This document shows, piece after piece, positions 47,792 to 55,047 of a stretch of DNA of 64,000 bases (position 1 is its first letter; the number at the start of each line of letters is the position of its first letter). This stretch comes from Candidatus Palauibacter poriticola (GTDB lineage Bacteria > Gemmatimonadota > Gemmatimonadetes > Palauibacterales > Palauibacteraceae). The notes beneath the pieces are model-generated. The model was not told the origin of the DNA and made no database searches. It saw nothing but the letters and a program-made list of their open reading frames with translations. The position numbers and the translations under genes were made by a program. The stretch is from assembly GCA_012270965.1 (NCBI GenBank), contig JAAXHJ010000066.1, positions 95,494 through 159,493 on the forward strand. Direction: 5' to 3'.

Positions 47792-47902
47792 GAGGGTTCC
47801 GGGGTGTGTTTGCGCCGGTTTCGCGACCCGTGCGAACTTCGGTCCCTCCCGGAGTCACCGGGGCGCGGAAGATAGACGGGGACGGTGGAGAGGCCAAGCG
47901 CG

Positions 47903-49657
47903 ATGTCGGACTCCGGAGCACGCATCTCGATGTTCGCCCTTCGGCGGCTTGCCCCGAGACTGCGTGCCCACCGTCCGGCGCTCGCCGGGGCCGGGTTCTG
48001 CCTGCTCCTGAGCACCGCGATCGGGCTCGCCTTCCCCCTCATCGTGCGCTACCTGATGGACGCGGCCTTCGGCGAGGGCGACCCCGCCCGGCTGGGCGCG
48101 ATCGCGCTCGGACTGCTGGGACTGTTCGCGCTTCAGGGCGCGTTCAACTTCGGAGAGACGTACTGGCTGGGAGCGACGGGCGAGCGGGTCGTGACGCAGC
48201 TGCGCGACGAACTCTTCTCCAAGCTGGTCGGGCTCTCCCCCGGCTTCCACGCGGGCCGAACCAGCGGCGAACTCACCTCGAGGCTGGCCTCCGACTGTTC
48301 GACGCTCCAGCAGATCATGGGCCACCAGATCGCCGAACTCGTGCGGCAGGTGCTCTTCCTCGCCGGCGCGGTCATCCTCCTCACGCTGCTTCACTGGCAA
48401 CTCATGCTGACGACGCTCACCGTCGCCCCCGTGGTCGTCCTCGCCGGCTTCGCGCTCGGCCGTCTCCTGCGGCGCCGGAGCACCGAGGTGCAGGATCGTC
48501 TCGCCGCAGCACACGCGGTTGCGGACGAAGCCTTCGGCCAGATCGAAGTCGTGCAGGGGTTCGTCCGGGAAAGGTGGGAAGAGGCCCGCTACCGAGCCGG
48601 GATCGCCTGGGCGCTCGAGGCGGCGCTCGCGCGCGCGGTGGTGCGGGCGATCCTCTTCGGCGTGCTCACGGTGGTCGCCTTCGGCGGCATCGTGGTCGTG
48701 CTGTGGCAGGGCGGGCGGCTCGTGCTCGCGGCCCAGATCACGGCCGGCCAACTGGTGTCGTTCCTCCTCTACGCCTTCTCCGTCGCGGCGGCGATCATGG
48801 CGCTCGCTTCGCTGTGGAGCAGCTACCAGGAGGCGCAGGGGGCCGCGCGCCGCGTCTTCGACCTCCTCGACCGCGACAGCGAGATCGTGGACCCGGAAGC
48901 CCCGGAATCGCTAGCGGGAGAGGGACCGCCGGCCATCGCCTTCGAGGGCGTCTCGTTCCGCTACGGCGATGACGAGCCGTGGGCGCTGGAGAAGATAGAC
49001 GCGATGATCCGCCCCGGCGAGGTCGTCGCCCTCGTGGGGCCGAGCGGCGCCGGGAAGACGACCCTCGCGTCGCTCATCCCCCGCTTCTGGGATGTGACCG
49101 CCGGAAGCGTCCGCGTGCGCGGGACCGACGTACGTTCCAGCGCCGTCGCCGACCTGAGATCGCGGATCGGGATCGTGCCGCAGGACCACCCGCTCTTCGC
49201 CGGCACGGTCGGGGAGAACATCGCCTACGGGAGGCCGAACGCGGACCGGCCGGCCATCGAGGAGGCAGCGGCGGCGGCACACGCGCGCGAGTTCATCGCG
49301 CGGCTTCCGCAGGGCTACGACACGCCGGTCGGCGAGCGCGGGGTCCGGCTCTCCGGCGGACAGCGTCAGCGGATCGCGATCGCCCGCGTCCTCCTCAAGG
49401 AGCCCGAAATCCTCATCCTCGACGAAGCGACGAGCGGCTTGGACGCCGAGAGCGAGGCCCTGGTCGAGGAGGCGCTGCAGATCGCCTCGGCGGGGCGAAC
49501 GACCGTCATCATCGCGCACCGCCTGCGCACGGTGCGGCGCGCCCACCGGCTCTTCGTCCTGGACCGGGGGCGCCTCGTCGACAGCGGCCCGCACGACGCG
49601 CTCATCGGCCGCTGCGAACTCTACGCCCGCCTCTACGAGGGCCAGCAACTCACCTGA
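47903..49657 (+). CDS. ABC exporter, fused permease and ATPase
   Basis: A 584-residue half-transporter. The N-terminal six-helix membrane domain spans about 20-310, with LDRDSEIVDPE marking the linker. The ATPase domain has Walker A GPSGAGKTT, Q-loop IGIVPQDHPLF, signature LSGGQRQRIAIAR, Walker B ILILDEATSGLD and H-loop VIIAHRL. The architecture is that of MsbA/multidrug-type homodimeric exporters (ABCB group). Substrate may be lipid or drug and cannot be read from sequence. The ATG at 47903 is preferred to GTG 47885 because GGAGAGG is well spaced from it. Divergent from heme A synthase. Confidence 0.93.
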   Translation: MSDSGARISMFALRRLAPRLRAHRPALAGAGFCLLLSTAIGLAFPLIVRYLMDAAFGEGDPARLGAIALGLLGLFALQGAFNFGETYWLGATGERVVTQLRDELFSKLVGLSPGFHAGRTSGELTSRLASDCSTLQQIMGHQIAELVRQVLFLAGAVILLTLLHWQLMLTTLTVAPVVVLAGFALGRLLRRRSTEVQDRLAAAHAVADEAFGQIEVVQGFVRERWEEARYRAGIAWALEAALARAVVRAILFGVLTVVAFGGIVVVLWQGGRLVLAAQITAGQLVSFLLYAFSVAAAIMALASLWSSYQEAQGAARRVFDLLDRDSEIVDPEAPESLAGEGPPAIAFEGVSFRYGDDEPWALEKIDAMIRPGEVVALVGPSGAGKTTLASLIPRFWDVTAGSVRVRGTDVRSSAVADLRSRIGIVPQDHPLFAGTVGENIAYGRPNADRPAIEEAAAAAHAREFIARLPQGYDTPVGERGVRLSGGQRQRIAIARVLLKEPEILILDEATSGLDAESEALVEEALQIASAGRTTVIIAHRLRTVRRAHRLFVLDRGRLVDSGPHDALIGRCELYARLYEGQQLT

Positions 49658-49675
49658 GCCTAGCTACCAGTGCGA

Positions 49676-49705
49676 AGCCCGGCCGCGTCGAGCGGCGCTG
49701 GAGCT
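49676..49705. repeat. Dispersed palindromic repeat remnant after ABC exporter
   Basis: AAGCCCGGCCGCGTCGAGCGGCGCTG matches the left half and core with one deletion (GTCGAG for GTTCGAG). It lies between the convergent ABC exporter and first propeller genes. Confidence 0.6.
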
Positions 49706-49791
49706 GCCGTTCCCAATACCGCTCGTCGCCTTCCGTGGCGGGGCCGACAGTTGTCTGCGGACCACAGGCGGCGCGGGCCGCAGCGCCCGAC

Positions 49792-50877
49792 TCAACGGTT
49801 ATCGGCAATGCTCGGCAGGAGATGTTCGTCGATCGCGAAGCTGCCGTCGTAGTTGATCGTGTAGGTTTTGGGATAGAACACGGTAGGGGCCCGCATCCAC
49901 GATCGGTCGAAGACGTATCGTTTCGTCACCCGGCCTCGCTTATCGAGTTCCCACATCTCGGTCGGGTTCCTGTTCGGATTCTCGGGGACCGCCTCGACGA
50001 GGAAGGATCCTCCGCTGATCGGCGCGGGCTTCCCCAGCCAGATCTTGCCGGCCGAGATCCGACCGCCGCCGCCAGCCGCCACGATGCGTCCCGCACGGCG
50101 GATGTTCTCCAGGAACGCCTCTCGCCACTCCGTGAGAACATGGCCCAGTTCGGTGAACGCGAATGCATTCAACATCGTCCCGTCGAGCCTGTAGATGCGT
50201 CCTTCGGGAACGGTGGGTTTCAGTACGACCAGCAATCCCTCGCCGAGGTATGTGACCGAACATGCAACACACTGACTGCTGCTGCCGACAAACCCTCCGT
50301 CCCCGACGGAGCCGAGGCGTCGTCCGTCCGTATGGAAGAATTCGAAGAGCGCACCCTCCGGACCGGGTAGGACGGCCAACAGTGTATCGGCTATGGTCGT
50401 TATGTCCCGAGGCGAATGTTGTAGGCGGATCTCCGTTACCATCTCGCGGGTGTCGCGATTGAAGATCACAAGCTTCCCGTTCCCGACATCCAAGGTGGTC
50501 ACATGGTCGGCACCGATCTCAAACGCGAGGAGATTCCTCAACTCGCCCGGCCCCCCGCCGCGCCCTCCGAAGCTACCCAGGAACCGGCCTTCGGTCGTGA
50601 ACTCCACGATCCGCTGATCATCCCGCTCCAGCGCGAGGAGGTGACCCGTCACTGGATCGTGTTGAAGCTTTGTGGGCCGTCCCAGCCAAGCAGTCGTTTC
50701 CGAAGTGTCCGGCTGAATCAATGTGCGCACCCACGTCAGCTCCAAGGGATGGGCCAGGGACGAAGCGTCGGCCGTCGCGGGCCTGCCGCAGGCCGCCAGC
50801 CCAACGGAAGCAAGCACCGCGCTCGCGAGAACCCCGACCAGGGTCCAGTGCAAGCCCGGCCCACAAGCCTTCAGCAA
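49792..50877 (-). CDS. Six-bladed beta-propeller lipoprotein, module copy 1
   Basis: A 361-residue exported lipoprotein. The start is TTG at 50877, overlapping the upstream peptide-gene stop (TTGCTGA), and the signal peptide ends VGLAAC. Longer frames start inside the peptide gene. The mature part has NHL/6-bladed-propeller strands: LQHDPVTGHLLALERDDQRIVEFTTEGRFLGSFGGRGGGPGEL, KLVIFNRDTREMV, GRIYRLDGTMLNAF and KRGRVTKRYVFDRSW. A conserved CVAC pair (Cys203/Cys206) sits in the middle. It is about half identical by eye to module copy 2. Function is unknown; ligand sensing or binding is a guess. Confidence 0.85.
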   Translation of the reverse strand: MLKACGPGLHWTLVGVLASAVLASVGLAACGRPATADASSLAHPLELTWVRTLIQPDTSETTAWLGRPTKLQHDPVTGHLLALERDDQRIVEFTTEGRFLGSFGGRGGGPGELRNLLAFEIGADHVTTLDVGNGKLVIFNRDTREMVTEIRLQHSPRDITTIADTLLAVLPGPEGALFEFFHTDGRRLGSVGDGGFVGSSSQCVACSVTYLGEGLLVVLKPTVPEGRIYRLDGTMLNAFAFTELGHVLTEWREAFLENIRRAGRIVAAGGGGRISAGKIWLGKPAPISGGSFLVEAVPENPNRNPTEMWELDKRGRVTKRYVFDRSWMRAPTVFYPKTYTINYDGSFAIDEHLLPSIADNR

Positions 50878-51086
50878 CTGCCCCCGAAACTCATGTAGTA
50901 GTGGTTGTCGCTGTACCCACACTCGATCCCGCCGAGATCATGCTCGTAGCAGAGGTGGAACCAGCCCCAACCGTCAAAGGGACAATCGTCGTCACAGTCC
51001 CCGGCCCGAGCATCGCCAACCGCAGCCGTCGCGGCAATCACGGTGGCGACAAGAATGGGTCGGGTGATCTTTCTGAGTGTGGTCAT
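50871..51086 (-). CDS. Secreted Cys-rich mini-protein, module copy 1
   Basis: A 71-residue product with a Sec signal (MTTLRKITRPILVATVIAA, cleavage expected after GDARA). The mature peptide is about 43 residues and rich in Cys, Asp, His and aromatics: GDCDDDCPFDG, then FHLC, EHDLG, ECGYSDNHYY and terminal GGSC. It has five cysteines, all conserved with copy 2, as are DDDCPxDG, HDLG and YSDxHYY. AAGGGAG precedes the ATG. Its stop overlaps the propeller start, so the two are translationally coupled. It may be a metal-binding or disulfide-linked peptide, or a precursor that is modified. No known family is recognised. Confidence 0.8.
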   Translation of the reverse strand: MTTLRKITRPILVATVIAATAAVGDARAGDCDDDCPFDGWGWFHLCYEHDLGGIECGYSDNHYYMSFGGSC

Positions 51087-51105
51087 TGATCGTGCTCCCT
51101 TCCGT

Positions 51106-51157
51106 CTCGTGAACCGACTCGTTCCACCAGTGCCCTTGCAACCGGTGGTCTCACGAG
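51106..51157 (-). promoter_or_regulatory. Structured leader of peptide gene copy 1
   Basis: The transcript leader can fold with outer arms CTCGTGA/TCACGAG and an inner CCGGT/ACTGG hairpin with a nine-base loop. The sequence is nearly identical to the leader of copy 2 (three differences in about 70 bases) while flanking sequence diverges more. It could be a regulatory RNA element, a transcription-factor site or simply a recent duplication. Confidence 0.5.
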
Positions 51158-51216
51158 CACACCCTACCCCCCCCTTCGCACGCGCGCAAGGCAACGGTTG
51201 AGCGGTATCGACATCG

Positions 51217-51279
51217 CCGGAATCGACGGCGAGTCCCAGGACCACGACGGGCCGTCCAGAGTACGCCCGGGCCAGCCGG
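51217..51279 (-). pseudogene. tlpA relic at duplication junction
   Basis: A 63-base segment that matches 52907-52969 inside the intact tlpA gene closely and without gaps. It encodes a fragment around LGLAVDSG in the same orientation, directly below the stop of propeller copy 2 and upstream of peptide copy 1. It is what remains of a second tlpA after tandem duplication and deletion of about 227 bases. Confidence 0.85.
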
Positions 51280-51281
51280 CA

Positions 51282-52349
51282 CTAATCCTCTTCAGCAGGC
51301 AGACGGTACTCGTACACGCCAAACTCGTGGCTCAGACCAAGCGCGAAGATCCGTGGGGGCGAGGCGGTGGAGGCCCCTATCAACGGACGGTCGAACACAT
51401 ATCGCTTCCGGACCCGCCCGCGATGATCGAGTACCCAGAATTCGTCCGCGTTCACGGCCAAGTTCTCAGGGCTCGCCCTTACGAAAAAGAGCCCGTCGCC
51501 AAAGGCTCCGGTTGGCAATCCAGCCCAGGCCCTGCCAGCCGCGATCCGGCCTCCCCCTCCGGTCGCGACCCTGCGCGACGCCTTGCGAATCGTCTCCAGG
51601 AAATCCTCGCGCCAAGCCGCCAAGACATGGTTGACCTCGCCGAAACCGAATGCGTCGAACATGGTTCCGTCCAGCCGGTAGACGCGCCCCTCGGGCGACT
51701 CGGGTTTCAAGACGACCAGCAACTCCTCGCCGATACTCGTGATGGAGCACGCAAGGCATGAGGAACCGAGGAAGGCCGCGTCTCCGAAGGCACCCAGGCT
51801 CTGCCCGTCGAGGTCGAAGAGTTCCCATAGTGTGCCGCCCGGGCCGGGCATGACCGCAACCAGCGTATCGCCCAGAACCGTCATGTCCCTGGTGCCGCGG
51901 TTGAGGGGCACCTCCGTAACCGCCTGCCGGGAGAGGCGGTCGAAGAAGAGGAGTTTGCCGTTCCCCCGATCCAGCGCGACTACCAAGCGCCTGGTGATCT
52001 CGAAGCTCCCGAGGTTCCGTATTTCACCGGGTCCCCTTCCGTGGCGACCGAAGTAGCCCACGAATTCGCCGGCGGTAGTGAATTCGACGATGTGCTGGTC
52101 ATCGATATCCACCCCCATGAGATGGTCCTCCACCGGATCGTGGCGCAGATTCCTGATCCGTCCAAGCCAAGCCGTCGCATCACTTGCGTCCTGTCGCACG
52201 ATCATGCGCACATGCTCCAAGGGGACCGGACGCGAGAGGGATCGATCCGGGCCGTCAGGGGCATCTCCGCCACACGACGGGAGATAGAGGCACAGCAGTC
52301 CGGCTTTCAGCTGTCGCGGCAACCCGGACGGGCGGATCGACGTCAGCAC
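51282..52349 (-). CDS. Six-bladed beta-propeller lipoprotein, module copy 2
   Basis: A 355-residue lipoprotein, paralogue of the copy at 49792. The GTG at 52349 overlaps the peptide-gene stop (GTGCTGA), exactly as in copy 1. The signal ends LYLPSC. The propeller strands are LRHDPVEDHLMGVDIDDQHIVEFTTAGEFVGYFGRHGRGPGEI, KLLFFDRLSRQAV and GRVYRLDGTMFDAFGFGEVNHVL, with the CLAC pair at Cys198/Cys201 conserved with copy 1. A short C-terminal acidic tail (PAEED) follows. It is probably anchored on the outside of the inner or outer membrane. Function is unknown. Confidence 0.85.
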   Translation of the reverse strand: MLTSIRPSGLPRQLKAGLLCLYLPSCGGDAPDGPDRSLSRPVPLEHVRMIVRQDASDATAWLGRIRNLRHDPVEDHLMGVDIDDQHIVEFTTAGEFVGYFGRHGRGPGEIRNLGSFEITRRLVVALDRGNGKLLFFDRLSRQAVTEVPLNRGTRDMTVLGDTLVAVMPGPGGTLWELFDLDGQSLGAFGDAAFLGSSCLACSITSIGEELLVVLKPESPEGRVYRLDGTMFDAFGFGEVNHVLAAWREDFLETIRKASRRVATGGGGRIAAGRAWAGLPTGAFGDGLFFVRASPENLAVNADEFWVLDHRGRVRKRYVFDRPLIGASTASPPRIFALGLSHEFGVYEYRLPAEED

Positions 52350-52549
52350 CCAGCCGAGGTCCAATAGTAGTGCATATCACTGTACCAGCACTGGCCGGGA
52401 CCGAGGTCGTGCTGCCAGCAGTTCGTGAAGGATCCCGCCCCGTCCCAGGGACAATCGTCGTCGCAACCTCGAGCGTCGCTGACGCCGCCGGTCACGAAGA
52501 GGATGGTGGAGAGGAGCGTGAGTCGGGTGATCCTTCTGAGGGTGGTCAT
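52343..52549 (-). CDS. Secreted Cys-rich mini-protein, module copy 2
   Basis: A 68-residue product with signal MTTLRRITRLTLLSTILFV and a mature part of about 40 residues starting near RGCDDDCPWDG, then FTNC, QHDLG, QCWYSDMHYY and terminal SAGC. It is shorter than the average called gene and hidden in a long in-frame open frame that also reads antisense of tlpA. Its ATG with GGAAAGGAG upstream and its alignment with copy 1 fix the start. All five Cys, HDLG and HYY match copy 1. Its stop overlaps the propeller start by 7 nt. Confidence 0.82.
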   Translation of the reverse strand: MTTLRRITRLTLLSTILFVTGGVSDARGCDDDCPWDGAGSFTNCWQHDLGPGQCWYSDMHYYWTSAGC

Positions 52550-52568
52550 TGATCGTGCTCCTTTCCGT

Positions 52569-52620
52569 CTCGTGAACCGACTCGTTCCGCCAGTGCCCTT
52601 GCAACCGGTGGTCTCACGAG
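52569..52620 (-). promoter_or_regulatory. Structured leader of peptide gene copy 2
   Basis: Same element as at 51106-51157: outer arms CTCGTGA/TCACGAG and inner CCGGT/ACTGG are unchanged between the copies, while the substitutions fall outside these pairs. It lies 20 nt upstream of the ATG and ends near the ribosome site. Confidence 0.5.
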
Positions 52621-52695
52621 TACACCCTACCCCCCCCCGCAAGCACGCAAGGCAACGGCTTGAGCGGGGGCTCCGGCTCGGTTCCGGCGAAGCCG

Positions 52696-53265
52696 TCAGG
52701 GGAGGAGGGCCTCGATCTCCCCCGTCAGCGACGCGGCGGTCTGGGGACCGAGGAGTTCCTTTCGGATCCAGCCGTCGGGGTCGATGACCAGCGTCGTCGG
52801 GAAGCCCACGGCCCCGAACGTGGCGACGGCATCGTCCATCCCGATGATCCAGTTCCGGTACTCGACGCCGTAGTCCTCGAGGAAGTCGCGGATCTCCTCC
52901 GGAGTCCCGGAATCGACGGCGAGCCCCAGGAGTACCACGCGCCGTCCGGCGTACGCCCGGGCCAGCCGGACGAGCTCCGGCAGCTCGTCGCGGCACGGGA
53001 GGCACCAAGTGCCCCACAGGTTGGCGATGACGACACTTCCGCGGAGATCGTCGAAGCTCGCCTCGCCGCCGTCCAGGGCGCGAAACACGTCGCCGGGCGC
53101 GGGCTTCGCCCCCGAGGGCACCCCATCCGGAGCGCCGCTCGCGGCCAAGTCGCGATCCGCCGCGCCCCCGGCTTCGGACGCATCGTCGCCCGCGGCGCAC
53201 CCGAGCCCGATCAGCGCCACGAGGGCGACGGCGCTCCACGCACCCGTCATCCGGTCAGCTCTCAT
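52696..53265 (-). CDS. TlpA-like thioredoxin-fold lipoprotein
   Basis: A 189-residue membrane-anchored thioredoxin-like protein. The lipoprotein signal ends LIGLGC (Cys23), and a Gly/Ala/Asp linker follows. The thioredoxin fold then has GSVVIANLWGTWCLPCRDELPEL (active-site Cys88-Leu-Pro-Cys91), VVLLGLAVDSGTPEEI and the cis-Pro segment GFPTTLVIDPDG. Family members reduce disulfides or haem-protein cysteines outside the cytoplasm. It is the gene immediately upstream of the peptide/propeller modules on the same strand (146 nt gap) and overlaps the amidohydrolase stop upstream by 11 nt. Confidence 0.93.
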   Translation of the reverse strand: MRADRMTGAWSAVALVALIGLGCAAGDDASEAGGAADRDLAASGAPDGVPSGAKPAPGDVFRALDGGEASFDDLRGSVVIANLWGTWCLPCRDELPELVRLARAYAGRRVVLLGLAVDSGTPEEIRDFLEDYGVEYRNWIIGMDDAVATFGAVGFPTTLVIDPDGWIRKELLGPQTAASLTGEIEALLP

Positions 53266-54976
53266 CGTCCGTCGCCGGCGTGAGGACCACTCCCGGGAGC
53301 GCCCACGTCAGCTCTCCCGCATCGACCACGAAGGCGCCGCCCACCAGCACGTAATCCACGCCCGACGGGTACTGGTGCGGCTCGAAGAACGTCGCGTTGT
53401 CCCGAAGTTCATCCAGGTCCAGCACGGCAATATCCGCGATGAGTCCCTCCCGGATGAGACCCCGGTCGCGGAGGCCCAACACCTGCGCCGGGAGACTCGT
53501 CATCGAGCGCACCGCGCTCTCCACCGACAGGATGTCGAGATCCATCGCGTAGCGCTTGATCTTGCGAGGGAAGGTGCCGTAGAAGCGCGCGTGCACGGGT
53601 CCGTCGTCCGGGAGGGCGATGCCGGCGTCGGAGGCTGTGACCAGCCACGGATGGGCCGAGAACTCCTCGACGTCGATCTCGGACAGGGAGAAACCGCGCA
53701 CGCGCGCCCCGCCCGGCCTCGCGCGGTCGCCCTCGAGTTGCAGCCGGATTGCGACTCCGACGGGAAACGCGTCCCACTCGGCCGCCAATTCCGCCACCGT
53801 CCTGCCGACCAGAGTCTCGTCGGGGTGATCCATGATGACGAGGTTCTCGGGCCCGCCGCGGCGGCTGATCTCGTGCGCGATATCGAGGCGGACGCGTTCG
53901 CCGCGCTCGGGATCGGAGAGCGCATACGTCAGCACCGCGGCGTAGTCGACGGCTTCCGGGCCGCCCGGACGCCCTCCCGGTCCGCCGCCGGGGAAGATCC
54001 AGCGCGGGAGGAGCACGGTGTTCCCGTCGCTGCCCGTCGTGTTGTACGGGTACTGGTCGGCGAAGATCGGGACTCCGCGCCCGCGGGCCCTCTCGATGAG
54101 GTCGACGAGCGCCCGTCCCGCCCCCCAGAAGTCCGCACCCCGGGCCTTGATGTGGGTGGCCACCGTCGTCACGCCCGTGCGCTCCGCGACTTCGATGTCC
54201 TCCAGAATGGTCTGGATCATGGTCGGCGGTCCCGGATCGTCCTGGCTCGGCCAAAACCACATCGGCGTCATGCCGGAGCTGCGCTCGTGCACGATGTAAA
54301 CGCCGCCCGCGCGACCCGCCGCTTCGACGAGGGGGAAGAGCTCGGAGGTCTCGCTCCAGATCCCCGGCACGTACTCGAGCCCGGCGCTGAGGCCGTAGGC
54401 GCCCTCCGCCATCCCCTGCTCGACCATCTCCGTCATCCGCTCGACCTCGGCGGGGGTTGACGGGCGCATGAAATCGGCTCCGAGCGCCATGCGCCGGATC
54501 GTGTTGTGCCCGACCATGAGCGCCGCGTTGGGCCCGTGCCCGCGGGACTCGAGGCGGCCGCGCTGCTCCGCGATCGGCCACGGCCCGCCGCCGTCTTGGT
54601 TGATGACGACGGTGGTGATGCCCTGACTCACGAGGTTCGGGGCGGCCCGGCGGCGCGCGCCCTCGCTCCCGGCGTCTCCCTCCGCGTCGAGTCCCCCGTC
54701 CGCGTGCGAATGAATGTCGATGAAGCCGGGGACGACGTACCGGCCATCGAGTTCGATCACGCGGTCGGCGGTGGCGCCGGCCAAGTTCCCGACCCGGAGG
54801 ATGCGCCCGCCGCGGATTCCCACATCCGCGCGGAACCAGGGATTCCCCGTGCCGTCCAGGACGCGTCCGCCACGCAGCAGGATATCGAAGGCCGGCTGTT
54901 GAGCGGCCGAGGGCGCGATGTGCATGAAGCCGAGGACGGCCGAAAAAAGGAGCGTGCGAAGGTCGCGGCGCTTCAT
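53255..54976 (-). CDS. D-aminoacylase-type amidohydrolase (N-acyl-D-amino acid deacylase), exported
   Basis: A 573-residue amidohydrolase with a signal peptide (MKRRDLRTLLFSAVLGFMHIAPSAAQ), so periplasmic or secreted. It has the beta-sandwich start LRGGRVLDGTGNPWFRADVGI, the metal site GFIDIHSHAD, YGLSAGLEYVPG, and late ATHIKARG, LDIAHEIS and HPWLVTASDAGIA segments of the D-aminoacylase group. Known relatives deacylate N-acyl-D-amino acids. The ATG at 54976 follows GGGAGAAG. Its last codons overlap tlpA. Confidence 0.9.
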   Translation of the reverse strand: MKRRDLRTLLFSAVLGFMHIAPSAAQQPAFDILLRGGRVLDGTGNPWFRADVGIRGGRILRVGNLAGATADRVIELDGRYVVPGFIDIHSHADGGLDAEGDAGSEGARRRAAPNLVSQGITTVVINQDGGGPWPIAEQRGRLESRGHGPNAALMVGHNTIRRMALGADFMRPSTPAEVERMTEMVEQGMAEGAYGLSAGLEYVPGIWSETSELFPLVEAAGRAGGVYIVHERSSGMTPMWFWPSQDDPGPPTMIQTILEDIEVAERTGVTTVATHIKARGADFWGAGRALVDLIERARGRGVPIFADQYPYNTTGSDGNTVLLPRWIFPGGGPGGRPGGPEAVDYAAVLTYALSDPERGERVRLDIAHEISRRGGPENLVIMDHPDETLVGRTVAELAAEWDAFPVGVAIRLQLEGDRARPGGARVRGFSLSEIDVEEFSAHPWLVTASDAGIALPDDGPVHARFYGTFPRKIKRYAMDLDILSVESAVRSMTSLPAQVLGLRDRGLIREGLIADIAVLDLDELRDNATFFEPHQYPSGVDYVLVGGAFVVDAGELTWALPGVVLTPATDDES

Positions 54977-55047
54977 GATCGCTTCTCCCGTGAGAGATCC
55001 GAGGTCGTGCGCCATAAGCTACGGCAGGTCGCATACGGGTCCAACCG

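What the first reader, a model, noticed from the sequence alone, without database searches (positions are those of the whole stretch)
49792..53265. Duplicated TlpA / Cys-rich mini-protein / beta-propeller module
Two copies of a tiny secreted five-Cys peptide gene are each followed by a beta-propeller lipoprotein gene whose start overlaps the peptide stop (TTGCTGA and GTGCTGA). A TlpA-like thioredoxin lies upstream on the same strand. The peptides share CDDDCPxDG, HDLG and YSDxHYY although the signal peptides differ more. Bacteroides NVEALA-type small proteins are also found beside six-bladed propeller genes, but I see no sequence match to them. Inference: peptide and propeller are partners, perhaps in signalling, metal handling or thiol chemistry.
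Basis: partly seen in the sequence, partly recalled or inferred. Interest (0 to 1): 0.82.

Follow-up and report, generated by a model that had tools for sequence, protein, structure and literature searches.

The report
Secreted cysteine-rich peptide plus propeller pair
A Gemmatimonadota bacterium carries two copies of a gene pair that encodes a tiny exported cysteine-rich protein and a propeller-shaped lipoprotein; the pair was inserted between ordinary genes, and similar pairs built on other small proteins recur in relatives, which suggests an uncharacterised two-part system.

Summary
In detail: two five-Cys peptides (68/71 aa, 57% identical) each overlap the start of a DUF5128-type six-bladed propeller lipoprotein (51% identical). 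TlpA is not part of the module. In 14 of 16 congeneric genomes TlpA lies tail-to-tail with the ABC-transporter gene, so the 3.0-kb low-G+C block is an insertion. The two cassettes are long-diverged alleles (propeller dS 1.24) joined recently: their leaders are 93% identical, and a 73-nt TlpA scar between them is a mosaic of two TlpA types of the genus. This peptide family had no convincing match in 297 other genomes. The architecture recurs, though. Three further small exported Cys-rich families without detectable sequence relation (II, III, IV) lie beside DUF5128 propellers in Gemmatimonadota; II and III largely follow propeller clades. Family IV lies in a mau-like cluster with MauE, a MauD-like thioredoxin and a weakly DsbD-like membrane protein. 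33 of 37 complete small proteins have an odd Cys count. Best reading: an exported, disulfide-rich small chain and its own propeller form a two-chain complex that works like, but is not, methylamine dehydrogenase. Binding and activity are inferred, not shown.

The parts
52343..52549 (-). small exported five-Cys protein, copy A (68 aa)
   Evidence: translation; alignment; no Pfam or NCBIfam match
51282..52349 (-). six-bladed propeller lipoprotein A, start GTG overlapping the peptide stop (longest frame reaches 52364)
   Evidence: PF17170 E 8.8e-4, below its cut-off; 51% identical to B; CxxC at SSCLACS
50871..51086 (-). small exported five-Cys protein, copy B (71 aa)
   Evidence: translation; 57% identical to A
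49792..50877 (-). six-bladed propeller lipoprotein B, start TTG overlapping the peptide stop (longest frame reaches 50922)
   Evidence: PF17170 25.2 bits, cut-off 22.9; CxxC at SSQCVACS
52522..52667 (-). leader and start block of copy A, 93% identical to that of copy B over 148 columns
   Evidence: blastn; no Rfam family at its gathering score, two weak matches elsewhere only; the 151-nt query matched only these two places in this genome
51059..51205 (-). leader and start block of copy B
   Evidence: blastn
51207..51279 (-). scar of TlpA sequence between the copies, a mosaic of two TlpA types of the genus
   Evidence: first 25 nt 2 mismatches to own TlpA and 11 to G055; next 48 nt 12 mismatches to own and 1 to G055
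49658..52695 (.). inserted block of 3038 nt that separates two genes adjacent in relatives
   Evidence: TlpA and ABC genes adjacent in 14 of 16 congeners; G+C 63.8% against 70.1% (sd 1.9) in 110 overlapping windows of this length elsewhere in the window
52696..53265 (-). TlpA-like thioredoxin: core gene beside the insertion, not a module member
   Evidence: AhpC-TSA 2.6e-13; matches in 17 of 17 genomes of the genus, own included; gene order
53255..55015 (-). amidohydrolase (D-aminoacylase-like), overlapping the TlpA start
   Evidence: PF07969 3.8e-21; beside TlpA in 13 of 16 congeners
47885..49657 (+). ABC-transporter gene, core gene on the other side of the insertion
   Evidence: counterparts tail-to-tail with TlpA in 14 of 16 congeners; the name is from reading the sequence, no family search was run on it

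Best explanation
The unit is a two-gene cassette. SHOWN: the first gene encodes a small protein with a signal-peptide-like N terminus and an odd number of cysteines (five); the second, overlapping gene encodes a lipoprotein-like protein with DUF5128-type six-bladed propeller sequence. The cassette lies as an insertion between genes that are adjacent in relatives, and two long-diverged alleles now lie in tandem, separated by a mosaic of TlpA sequence. In Gemmatimonadota other propellers have other small Cys-rich exported proteins as neighbours, and families II and III go with particular propeller clades. INFERRED: the second allele arrived by recombination inside TlpA sequence; the small chain is exported, oxidatively folded and then docks on its own propeller in the envelope, so that the propeller is a scaffold or receptor for a disulfide-rich small subunit, as the propeller heavy chain of methylamine dehydrogenase is for its Cys-rich light chain (recalled). 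In the window family the fifth, C-terminal cysteine may form a mixed disulfide with the propeller's CxxC, which the peptide-less homologue L019 lacks. What the complex binds or converts is unknown; my first guess is redox or ligand binding at the cell surface.
For: Overlapping genes, twice. Purifying selection on the peptide: dN/dS 0.275; families II and III: 0.16-0.52 in 11 pairs. Insertion: 14 of 16 empty sites, low G+C. Recombination: propeller dS 1.24, against dS 0.23-0.66 for flanking genes between this genome and four congeners, 93% leader identity, mosaic scar. Recurrence: 13 of 80 propellers have a small exported-looking ORF with at least 4 Cys just upstream (one spurious by eye), against 2.3 expected from the rest of the same strand, Poisson P about 1e-6. 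Of 19 further family II/III loci found with the small protein as bait, the next gene is a propeller in 16. Tree: partner label needs 9 changes against 27.2 shuffled, 0 of 200 as low. Family IV: 10 of 11 hits have a propeller in the same cluster; of 10 regions 8 have a MauD-like, 8 a DsbD-like and 6 a MauE gene. Odd Cys count in 33 of 37 complete small proteins.
Against: No physical interaction is shown, and complexes could not be modelled. The window peptide family has no convincing match in 297 other genomes (one weak hit, E 0.007), by a two-row profile of limited reach. Families I-IV show no sequence relation (hhalign probability under 5% in all six comparisons), so one shared mechanism is inferred from architecture. 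MauE and MauD-like genes were found only with family IV. Several family III propellers have no Cys, so covalent docking cannot be general. Four of 37 small proteins have an even Cys count (L178, L190, L197, L224), and all but L178 have a propeller; an unclassified small protein in L102 has six. In 3 of 19 loci the next gene is not a propeller. 67 of 80 sampled propellers gave no small ORF by the filter; of these, L098, L102, L109 and L151 (and L150, whose hit was spurious) do have a small Cys protein or its remnant nearby. Both structure models are poor (pLDDT 54 and 46.9).
Confidence: 0.55

Rival explanations
1. Secreted effector and immunity pair: the Cys-rich peptide is a bacteriocin-like effector and the lipoprotein propeller protects the producer. 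Stacked, diverged alleles behind a shared leader would reflect arms-race turnover.
For: Mosaic allele stacking and strong divergence next to a conserved leader; patchy presence and insertion with low G+C.
Against: dN/dS is below 0.6 in each pair of small proteins tested; families II-IV are found in more than one taxonomic family of the phylum; family IV carries a maturation set like that of an enzyme. I recall no propeller of this type as an immunity protein.
Confidence: 0.13
2. Peptide natural-product precursor: the small ORF is a precursor and the propeller helps to process or export it.
For: decRiPPter lists Streptomyces candidate RiPP families with MauE, one also with MauD (PMC7794033, passages seen). 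The peptide-amidating lyase propeller appears among weak PDB sequence matches (3fvz, E 1e-4), behind NHL-repeat proteins such as Thin and TRIM71.
Against: No modifying enzyme is evident among the six window proteins scanned; most family III and IV proteins are about 130-165 aa, with a conserved C-terminal tail in III, unlike a short core peptide.
Confidence: 0.1
3. Metal or ligand handling: a Cys/His/Asp-rich small protein delivers or holds a metal for the propeller, as the propeller protein AztD does for zinc.
For: CDDDCPxDG and conserved His and Asp in the peptides. AztD is a zinc-binding protein that passes zinc on (PMC6689063, start of abstract seen).
Against: No metal-handling gene stood out by eye in the regions, but none was searched for; the odd Cys counts and MauE/MauD-like genes point to disulfides.
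Confidence: 0.12
4. The small ORFs are incidental neighbours of very common propeller genes; the two-copy locus is a plain tandem duplication.
For: DUF5128 propellers are frequent (2-34 per genome), and most sampled ones gave no small partner (67 of 80).
Against: Enrichment about five- to six-fold, adjacency in 16 of 19 loci found without propeller bait, label clustering on the tree. A plain duplication does not fit strong coding divergence beside a 93% leader and a mosaic TlpA scar.
Confidence: 0.1

Closest known systems
Methylamine dehydrogenase and its mau cluster (MauA light chain, MauB propeller, MauE, MauD)
   Same: Small exported Cys-rich chain encoded with a beta-propeller chain; family IV relatives also have MauE (PF07291 above its cut-off in the two scanned), a MauD-like thioredoxin and a membrane protein with a weak, below-cut-off DsbD_2 match.
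   Different: No match to any light-chain or heavy-chain profile; six-bladed DUF5128 propeller rather than the seven-bladed heavy chain (recalled); no invariant Trp between the two window peptides; no MauE beside the window pair.
DUF5128 / 6-bladed beta-propeller proteins (PF17170)
   Same: Both window propellers match the family; it is abundant in this genus.
   Different: propA scores below the curated cut-off; no paper of the library holds the name DUF5128.
Bacteroides NVEALA small proteins beside six-bladed propellers
   Same: Small exported proteins next to propeller genes.
   Different: No PF14055 match for the proteins of families I-IV that were scanned; no paper in the library holds the word NVEALA.
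MauE/MauD-associated candidate RiPP families in Streptomyces (decRiPPter, PMC7794033)
   Same: Small precursor-like protein genes found with MauE, once with MauD.
   Different: No propeller partner in the passages read; different phylum.

Membership tests
DUF5128 (PF17170) | profile score at or above 22.9 bits, propB | tested here: met
   25.2 bits
DUF5128 (PF17170) | profile score at or above 22.9 bits, propA | tested here: not met
   19.0 bits, though 51% identical to propB
NVEALA small proteins (PF14055) | match to the family profile | tested here: not met
   no match for window peptides up to E 1 nor for the members of families II-IV scanned, up to E 10 or 1
Methylamine dehydrogenase | light-chain profile match (small proteins, window and family IV) | tested here: not met
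   no Pfam family; no NCBIfam family
Methylamine dehydrogenase | heavy-chain profile match (propellers, window and family IV) | tested here: not met
   only DUF5128, NHL, SGL, Reg_prop and weak other profiles, e.g. ScyF
Methylamine dehydrogenase | two conserved Trp for the TTQ cofactor (recalled) in the small chain | tested here: not met
   no invariant Trp in A1, one in A6; 5 of 9 complete family IV proteins have a single Trp after the signal part
Methylamine dehydrogenase | MauE and MauD maturation genes beside the pair | tested here: inconclusive
   present with family IV (MauE 8.6e-16 and 2.2e-16; MauD TIGR02661 6.1e-7 and 9.8e-5, far below its cut-off); none in the window block
Methylamine dehydrogenase | amine oxidation | not testable with these tools
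   needs purified protein
RiPP precursor | modifying enzyme gene beside the precursor | tested here: inconclusive
   six window proteins scanned: none evident; other neighbours were not scanned
Effector/immunity pair | toxicity relieved by partner | not testable with these tools

The most novel reading that the evidence does not exclude
Gemmatimonadota use a class of two-chain envelope complexes in which a six-bladed propeller carries an interchangeable, mostly odd-cysteine small subunit, in one branch with its own oxidative maturation set (MauE, MauD-like, DsbD-like), possibly with a protein-derived cofactor or cross-link: all nine complete family IV proteins keep a Cys-Trp-Cys motif. The window cassette would be a stripped-down, horizontally moving, allele-swapping version.
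Probability: 0.2. Interest if true: 0.82.

Novelty: new variant of a known kind. Interest (0 to 1): 0.62.

Why it matters
It turns one odd locus into a testable rule: certain propeller clades come with their own small Cys-rich exported protein. If the pairs form complexes, a large uncharacterised propeller family gains a first function, and a mau-like maturation cluster without methylamine dehydrogenase profiles becomes a clear target. The mosaic TlpA scar also suggests how such cassettes move and stack.

Tried and rejected
TlpA as part of the module: rejected by gene order. RNA element in the leader: no Rfam match at gathering score, two weak ones elsewhere; the fold is stronger than shuffles for copy B (z -2.2) but not for copy A (z 0.5), so I explain the leader by recent common origin. 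Plain tandem duplication: rejected on divergence and the mosaic scar. Peptide relatives: in 297 other genomes one weak hit (L018 in G135, E 0.007), a part-match inside a 602-aa frame, which I took as chance; none confirmed in viral contigs (19 pattern matches). Propeller relatives: among congeners only G200 at 51% (L019, same contig stretch as L032 by its coordinates; no small Cys ORF noted upstream) and a distant one (L020); a decayed copy at G000:C59 (L003); distant L026 and L027 outside the genus; none in plasmids. Structure: peptide pLDDT 54, propeller 46.9, so no fold search was run. PDB: weak NHL-type matches for the propeller, nothing useful for families I, III and IV (family II not tried). 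Homology between small families: hhalign probability under 5% in all six comparisons. One search's near-hit in L150 is spurious; L226, a family IV gene just upstream of propeller L151, had been missed by the filter. In one search the comparison with G055 was out of register; one search replaces it. One search's automatic Cys counts are cut in the wrong place for some rows; one search replaces them. Rows dropped: L169, L170 and L192 were left out of the tree; L098 and L151 were labelled 'none' there although small partners lie nearby; L109 (no start of its small protein seen) was labelled III; family IV was not labelled. Broken, partial or doubtful small-protein frames (L109, L147, L180, L192, L201, L220, L221) were left out of the Cys count, and the unclassified protein of L102 too. 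Papers with matching words but no bearing in the passages seen: PMC10875860, PMC12419801, PMC10434189.
Full report
Observation. The peptides are 68 and 71 aa, 57% identical, with five Cys each after the signal part. The propellers are 51% identical and start on GTG or TTG codons that overlap the peptide stops; both then read as lipoproteins by eye. The peptides match no Pfam or NCBIfam family. The propellers match DUF5128, propB above and propA below the cut-off.

TlpA is a bystander. A TlpA match was found in all 16 other genomes of the genus. In 14 of them the ABC-transporter gene follows directly, tail to tail, with at most a few tens of bases between; in two (L046, L047) no ABC gene lay within the 1.5 kb held. 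The amidohydrolase lies on the other side of TlpA in 13 of 16. In the window 3038 nt lie between the TlpA and ABC stops. That block has 63.8% G+C, lower than each of 110 overlapping windows of this length elsewhere in the window (mean 70.1%, minimum 65.3%). I conclude that the block is an insertion.

The two cassettes are recombined alleles. The propeller pair has dS 1.24 and the peptide pair 1.16, whereas the flanking genes have dS 0.23-0.66 between this genome and four congeners. Yet a leader block of 148 columns is 93% identical between copies. Between the copies lies a non-coding piece of TlpA (73 nt): its first 25 nt match this genome's own TlpA (2 mismatches; 11 to G055), its last 48 nt match the type found in G055 (1 mismatch; 12 to own). 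The coding parts thus parted long before the joint was made. I infer that a second allele arrived from a congeneric lineage with a G055-type TlpA. G055 itself has the empty site, so the donor is unsampled. The scar is short, so this rests on few sites.

Range of this family. A two-row profile of the peptide finds nothing beyond the two copies in 297 other Gemmatimonadota genomes except one weak hit (G135, E 0.007) that I took as chance. The propeller has one relative at 51% among 16 congeners (G200); it shows no small Cys ORF upstream by eye and lacks the CxxC shared by the two window propellers. That correlation rests on three sequences. A decayed third propeller lies at G000:C59.

The architecture recurs. 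DUF5128 propellers number 2-34 per genome in 17 of 17 genomes of the genus, 325 matches in all. I fetched 80 propeller loci, mostly from that list, some. 13 of 80 have a small ORF (40-180 aa) with a crude signal peptide and at least four Cys ending just upstream of, or overlapping, the propeller frame; 2.3 are expected from the rest of the same strand (9 hits there, some of them real small proteins), and the whole antisense strand gave 3. One of the 13 (L150) is spurious by eye. The other 12 fall into family II (L128, L147 frameshifted, L148), family III (L099, L108, L133, L134, L138, L166, L152, L156) and family IV (L111). Profiles of families III and II then found 16 and 6 of 298 genomes. 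Of 19 loci among those hits that had not come in through propellers, the next gene is DUF5128 at E below 0.05 in 13 and similar by BLASTP to sampled propellers in 3 more (L184, L190, L192). It is something else in L178, L186 and L196, the last with a propeller-like gene (DUF5128 E 0.019) upstream. Some of these loci are counterparts in sister species, and the profiles were built from propeller-linked members, so they are not 19 independent events.

Co-inheritance. On a quick tree of 96 propellers, partner labels need 9 changes against a shuffled mean of 27.2 (0 of 200 as low). Five of seven family II propellers form one clade with SH-aLRT 100, and all 20 family III propellers lie inside one 26-row group (SH-aLRT 94) that also holds four propellers without a label and two of family II. 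Near-copies inflate such clustering, and many branches are long. The two window propellers group with the peptide-less L019.

Family IV and the mau-like cluster. Family IV proteins have a Tat-like N terminus (twin Arg, by eye). They were found in 6 of 298 genomes, 11 hits, the last one weak. For 10 of 11 a DUF5128-type propeller lies in the same cluster; of 10 regions read (L204, L205, L227-L234), by tblastn at E 1e-3, 8 have a MauD-like thioredoxin, 8 a DsbD-like membrane protein and 6 a MauE gene. Only L204 and L205 were scanned with profiles: MauE is above its Pfam cut-off in both, MauD is recognisable but far below its equivalog cut-off, and the DsbD_2 match of the membrane protein is weak and below its cut-off in one and absent in the other. 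MauE and MauD serve maturation of methylamine dehydrogenase, and MauE has been proposed to act in disulfide formation of its small subunit (PMC7794033, passages seen). No light- or heavy-chain profile matches, so this is a resemblance, not membership. All nine complete family IV proteins keep a Cys-Trp-Cys motif.

Cysteine parity. After the signal part, 33 of 37 complete small proteins of the four families have an odd Cys count: 5, 7, 9, 13 or 15. The exceptions are L178, L190 and L197 with 6 and L224 with 16. Many of the 37 are close relatives, and for family II the count depends on where the signal is cut. An unpaired Cys in an exported protein suggests a partner thiol or a cross-link, but several family III propellers have no Cys, so this cannot be one covalent scheme for all.

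Selection. dN/dS is 0.20-0.52 in nine family III pairs and 0.16-0.21 in two family II pairs, so these small frames look like constrained genes. Family IV was not tested this way.

What is shown and what is not. Shown: the genes, their overlap, the empty sites, the mosaic joint, recurrence and association. Inferred: export, disulfides, docking on the propeller, any redox or ligand role. Papers: no paper in the library holds NVEALA or DUF5128, and none holds both '6-bladed beta-propeller' and Gemmatimonadota. The search for cysteine-rich, beta-propeller and Gemmatimonadetes gave two papers whose passages do not concern such pairs; the search with MauE gave two unrelated titles; one search listed 20 of 68 papers with '6-bladed beta-propeller', of which I looked into one. 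That is absence from those searches only.

Noticed in passing
G000:C59 17456-18037, locus L003: Decayed third copy of the window-type propeller: three fragments and no N-terminal part; the leader was not found there.
   Followed up: partly
L204, L205, L227-L232: Mau-like cluster without methylamine dehydrogenase profiles: DsbD-like membrane protein, 13- to 16-Cys Tat-like small protein, DUF5128-type propeller, MauE (in 6 of these 8) and MauD-like thioredoxin; profiles were run on L204 and L205 only.
   Followed up: partly
L206 2849-5164 (G298:C45): A small six-Cys exported protein, a DsbA/Thioredoxin_4 protein and a DUF5128 propeller in a row on one strand: another thiol-oxidation link.
   Followed up: no
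family III small proteins, e.g. L134 1374-1808: A conserved C-terminal tail around RxCxGxIVxRxYS follows the Cys-rich part in 15 aligned sequences from several families of the phylum; no Pfam or NCBIfam match for the members scanned.
   Followed up: partly
L174, L179, L188, L189, L208-L210, L213, L214: A further exported-looking gene of about 190-360 aa lies just upstream of family III small proteins and may be a third component; four were scanned and had no Pfam match.
   Followed up: no
L147, L180, L192, L201: Several small-protein genes carry a frameshift or stop beside a propeller: decay, or errors in draft genomes.
   Followed up: no
L195 1396-3303: A family II-like small protein is separated from its propeller by a small gene that looks PDZ-like by eye.
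   Followed up: no
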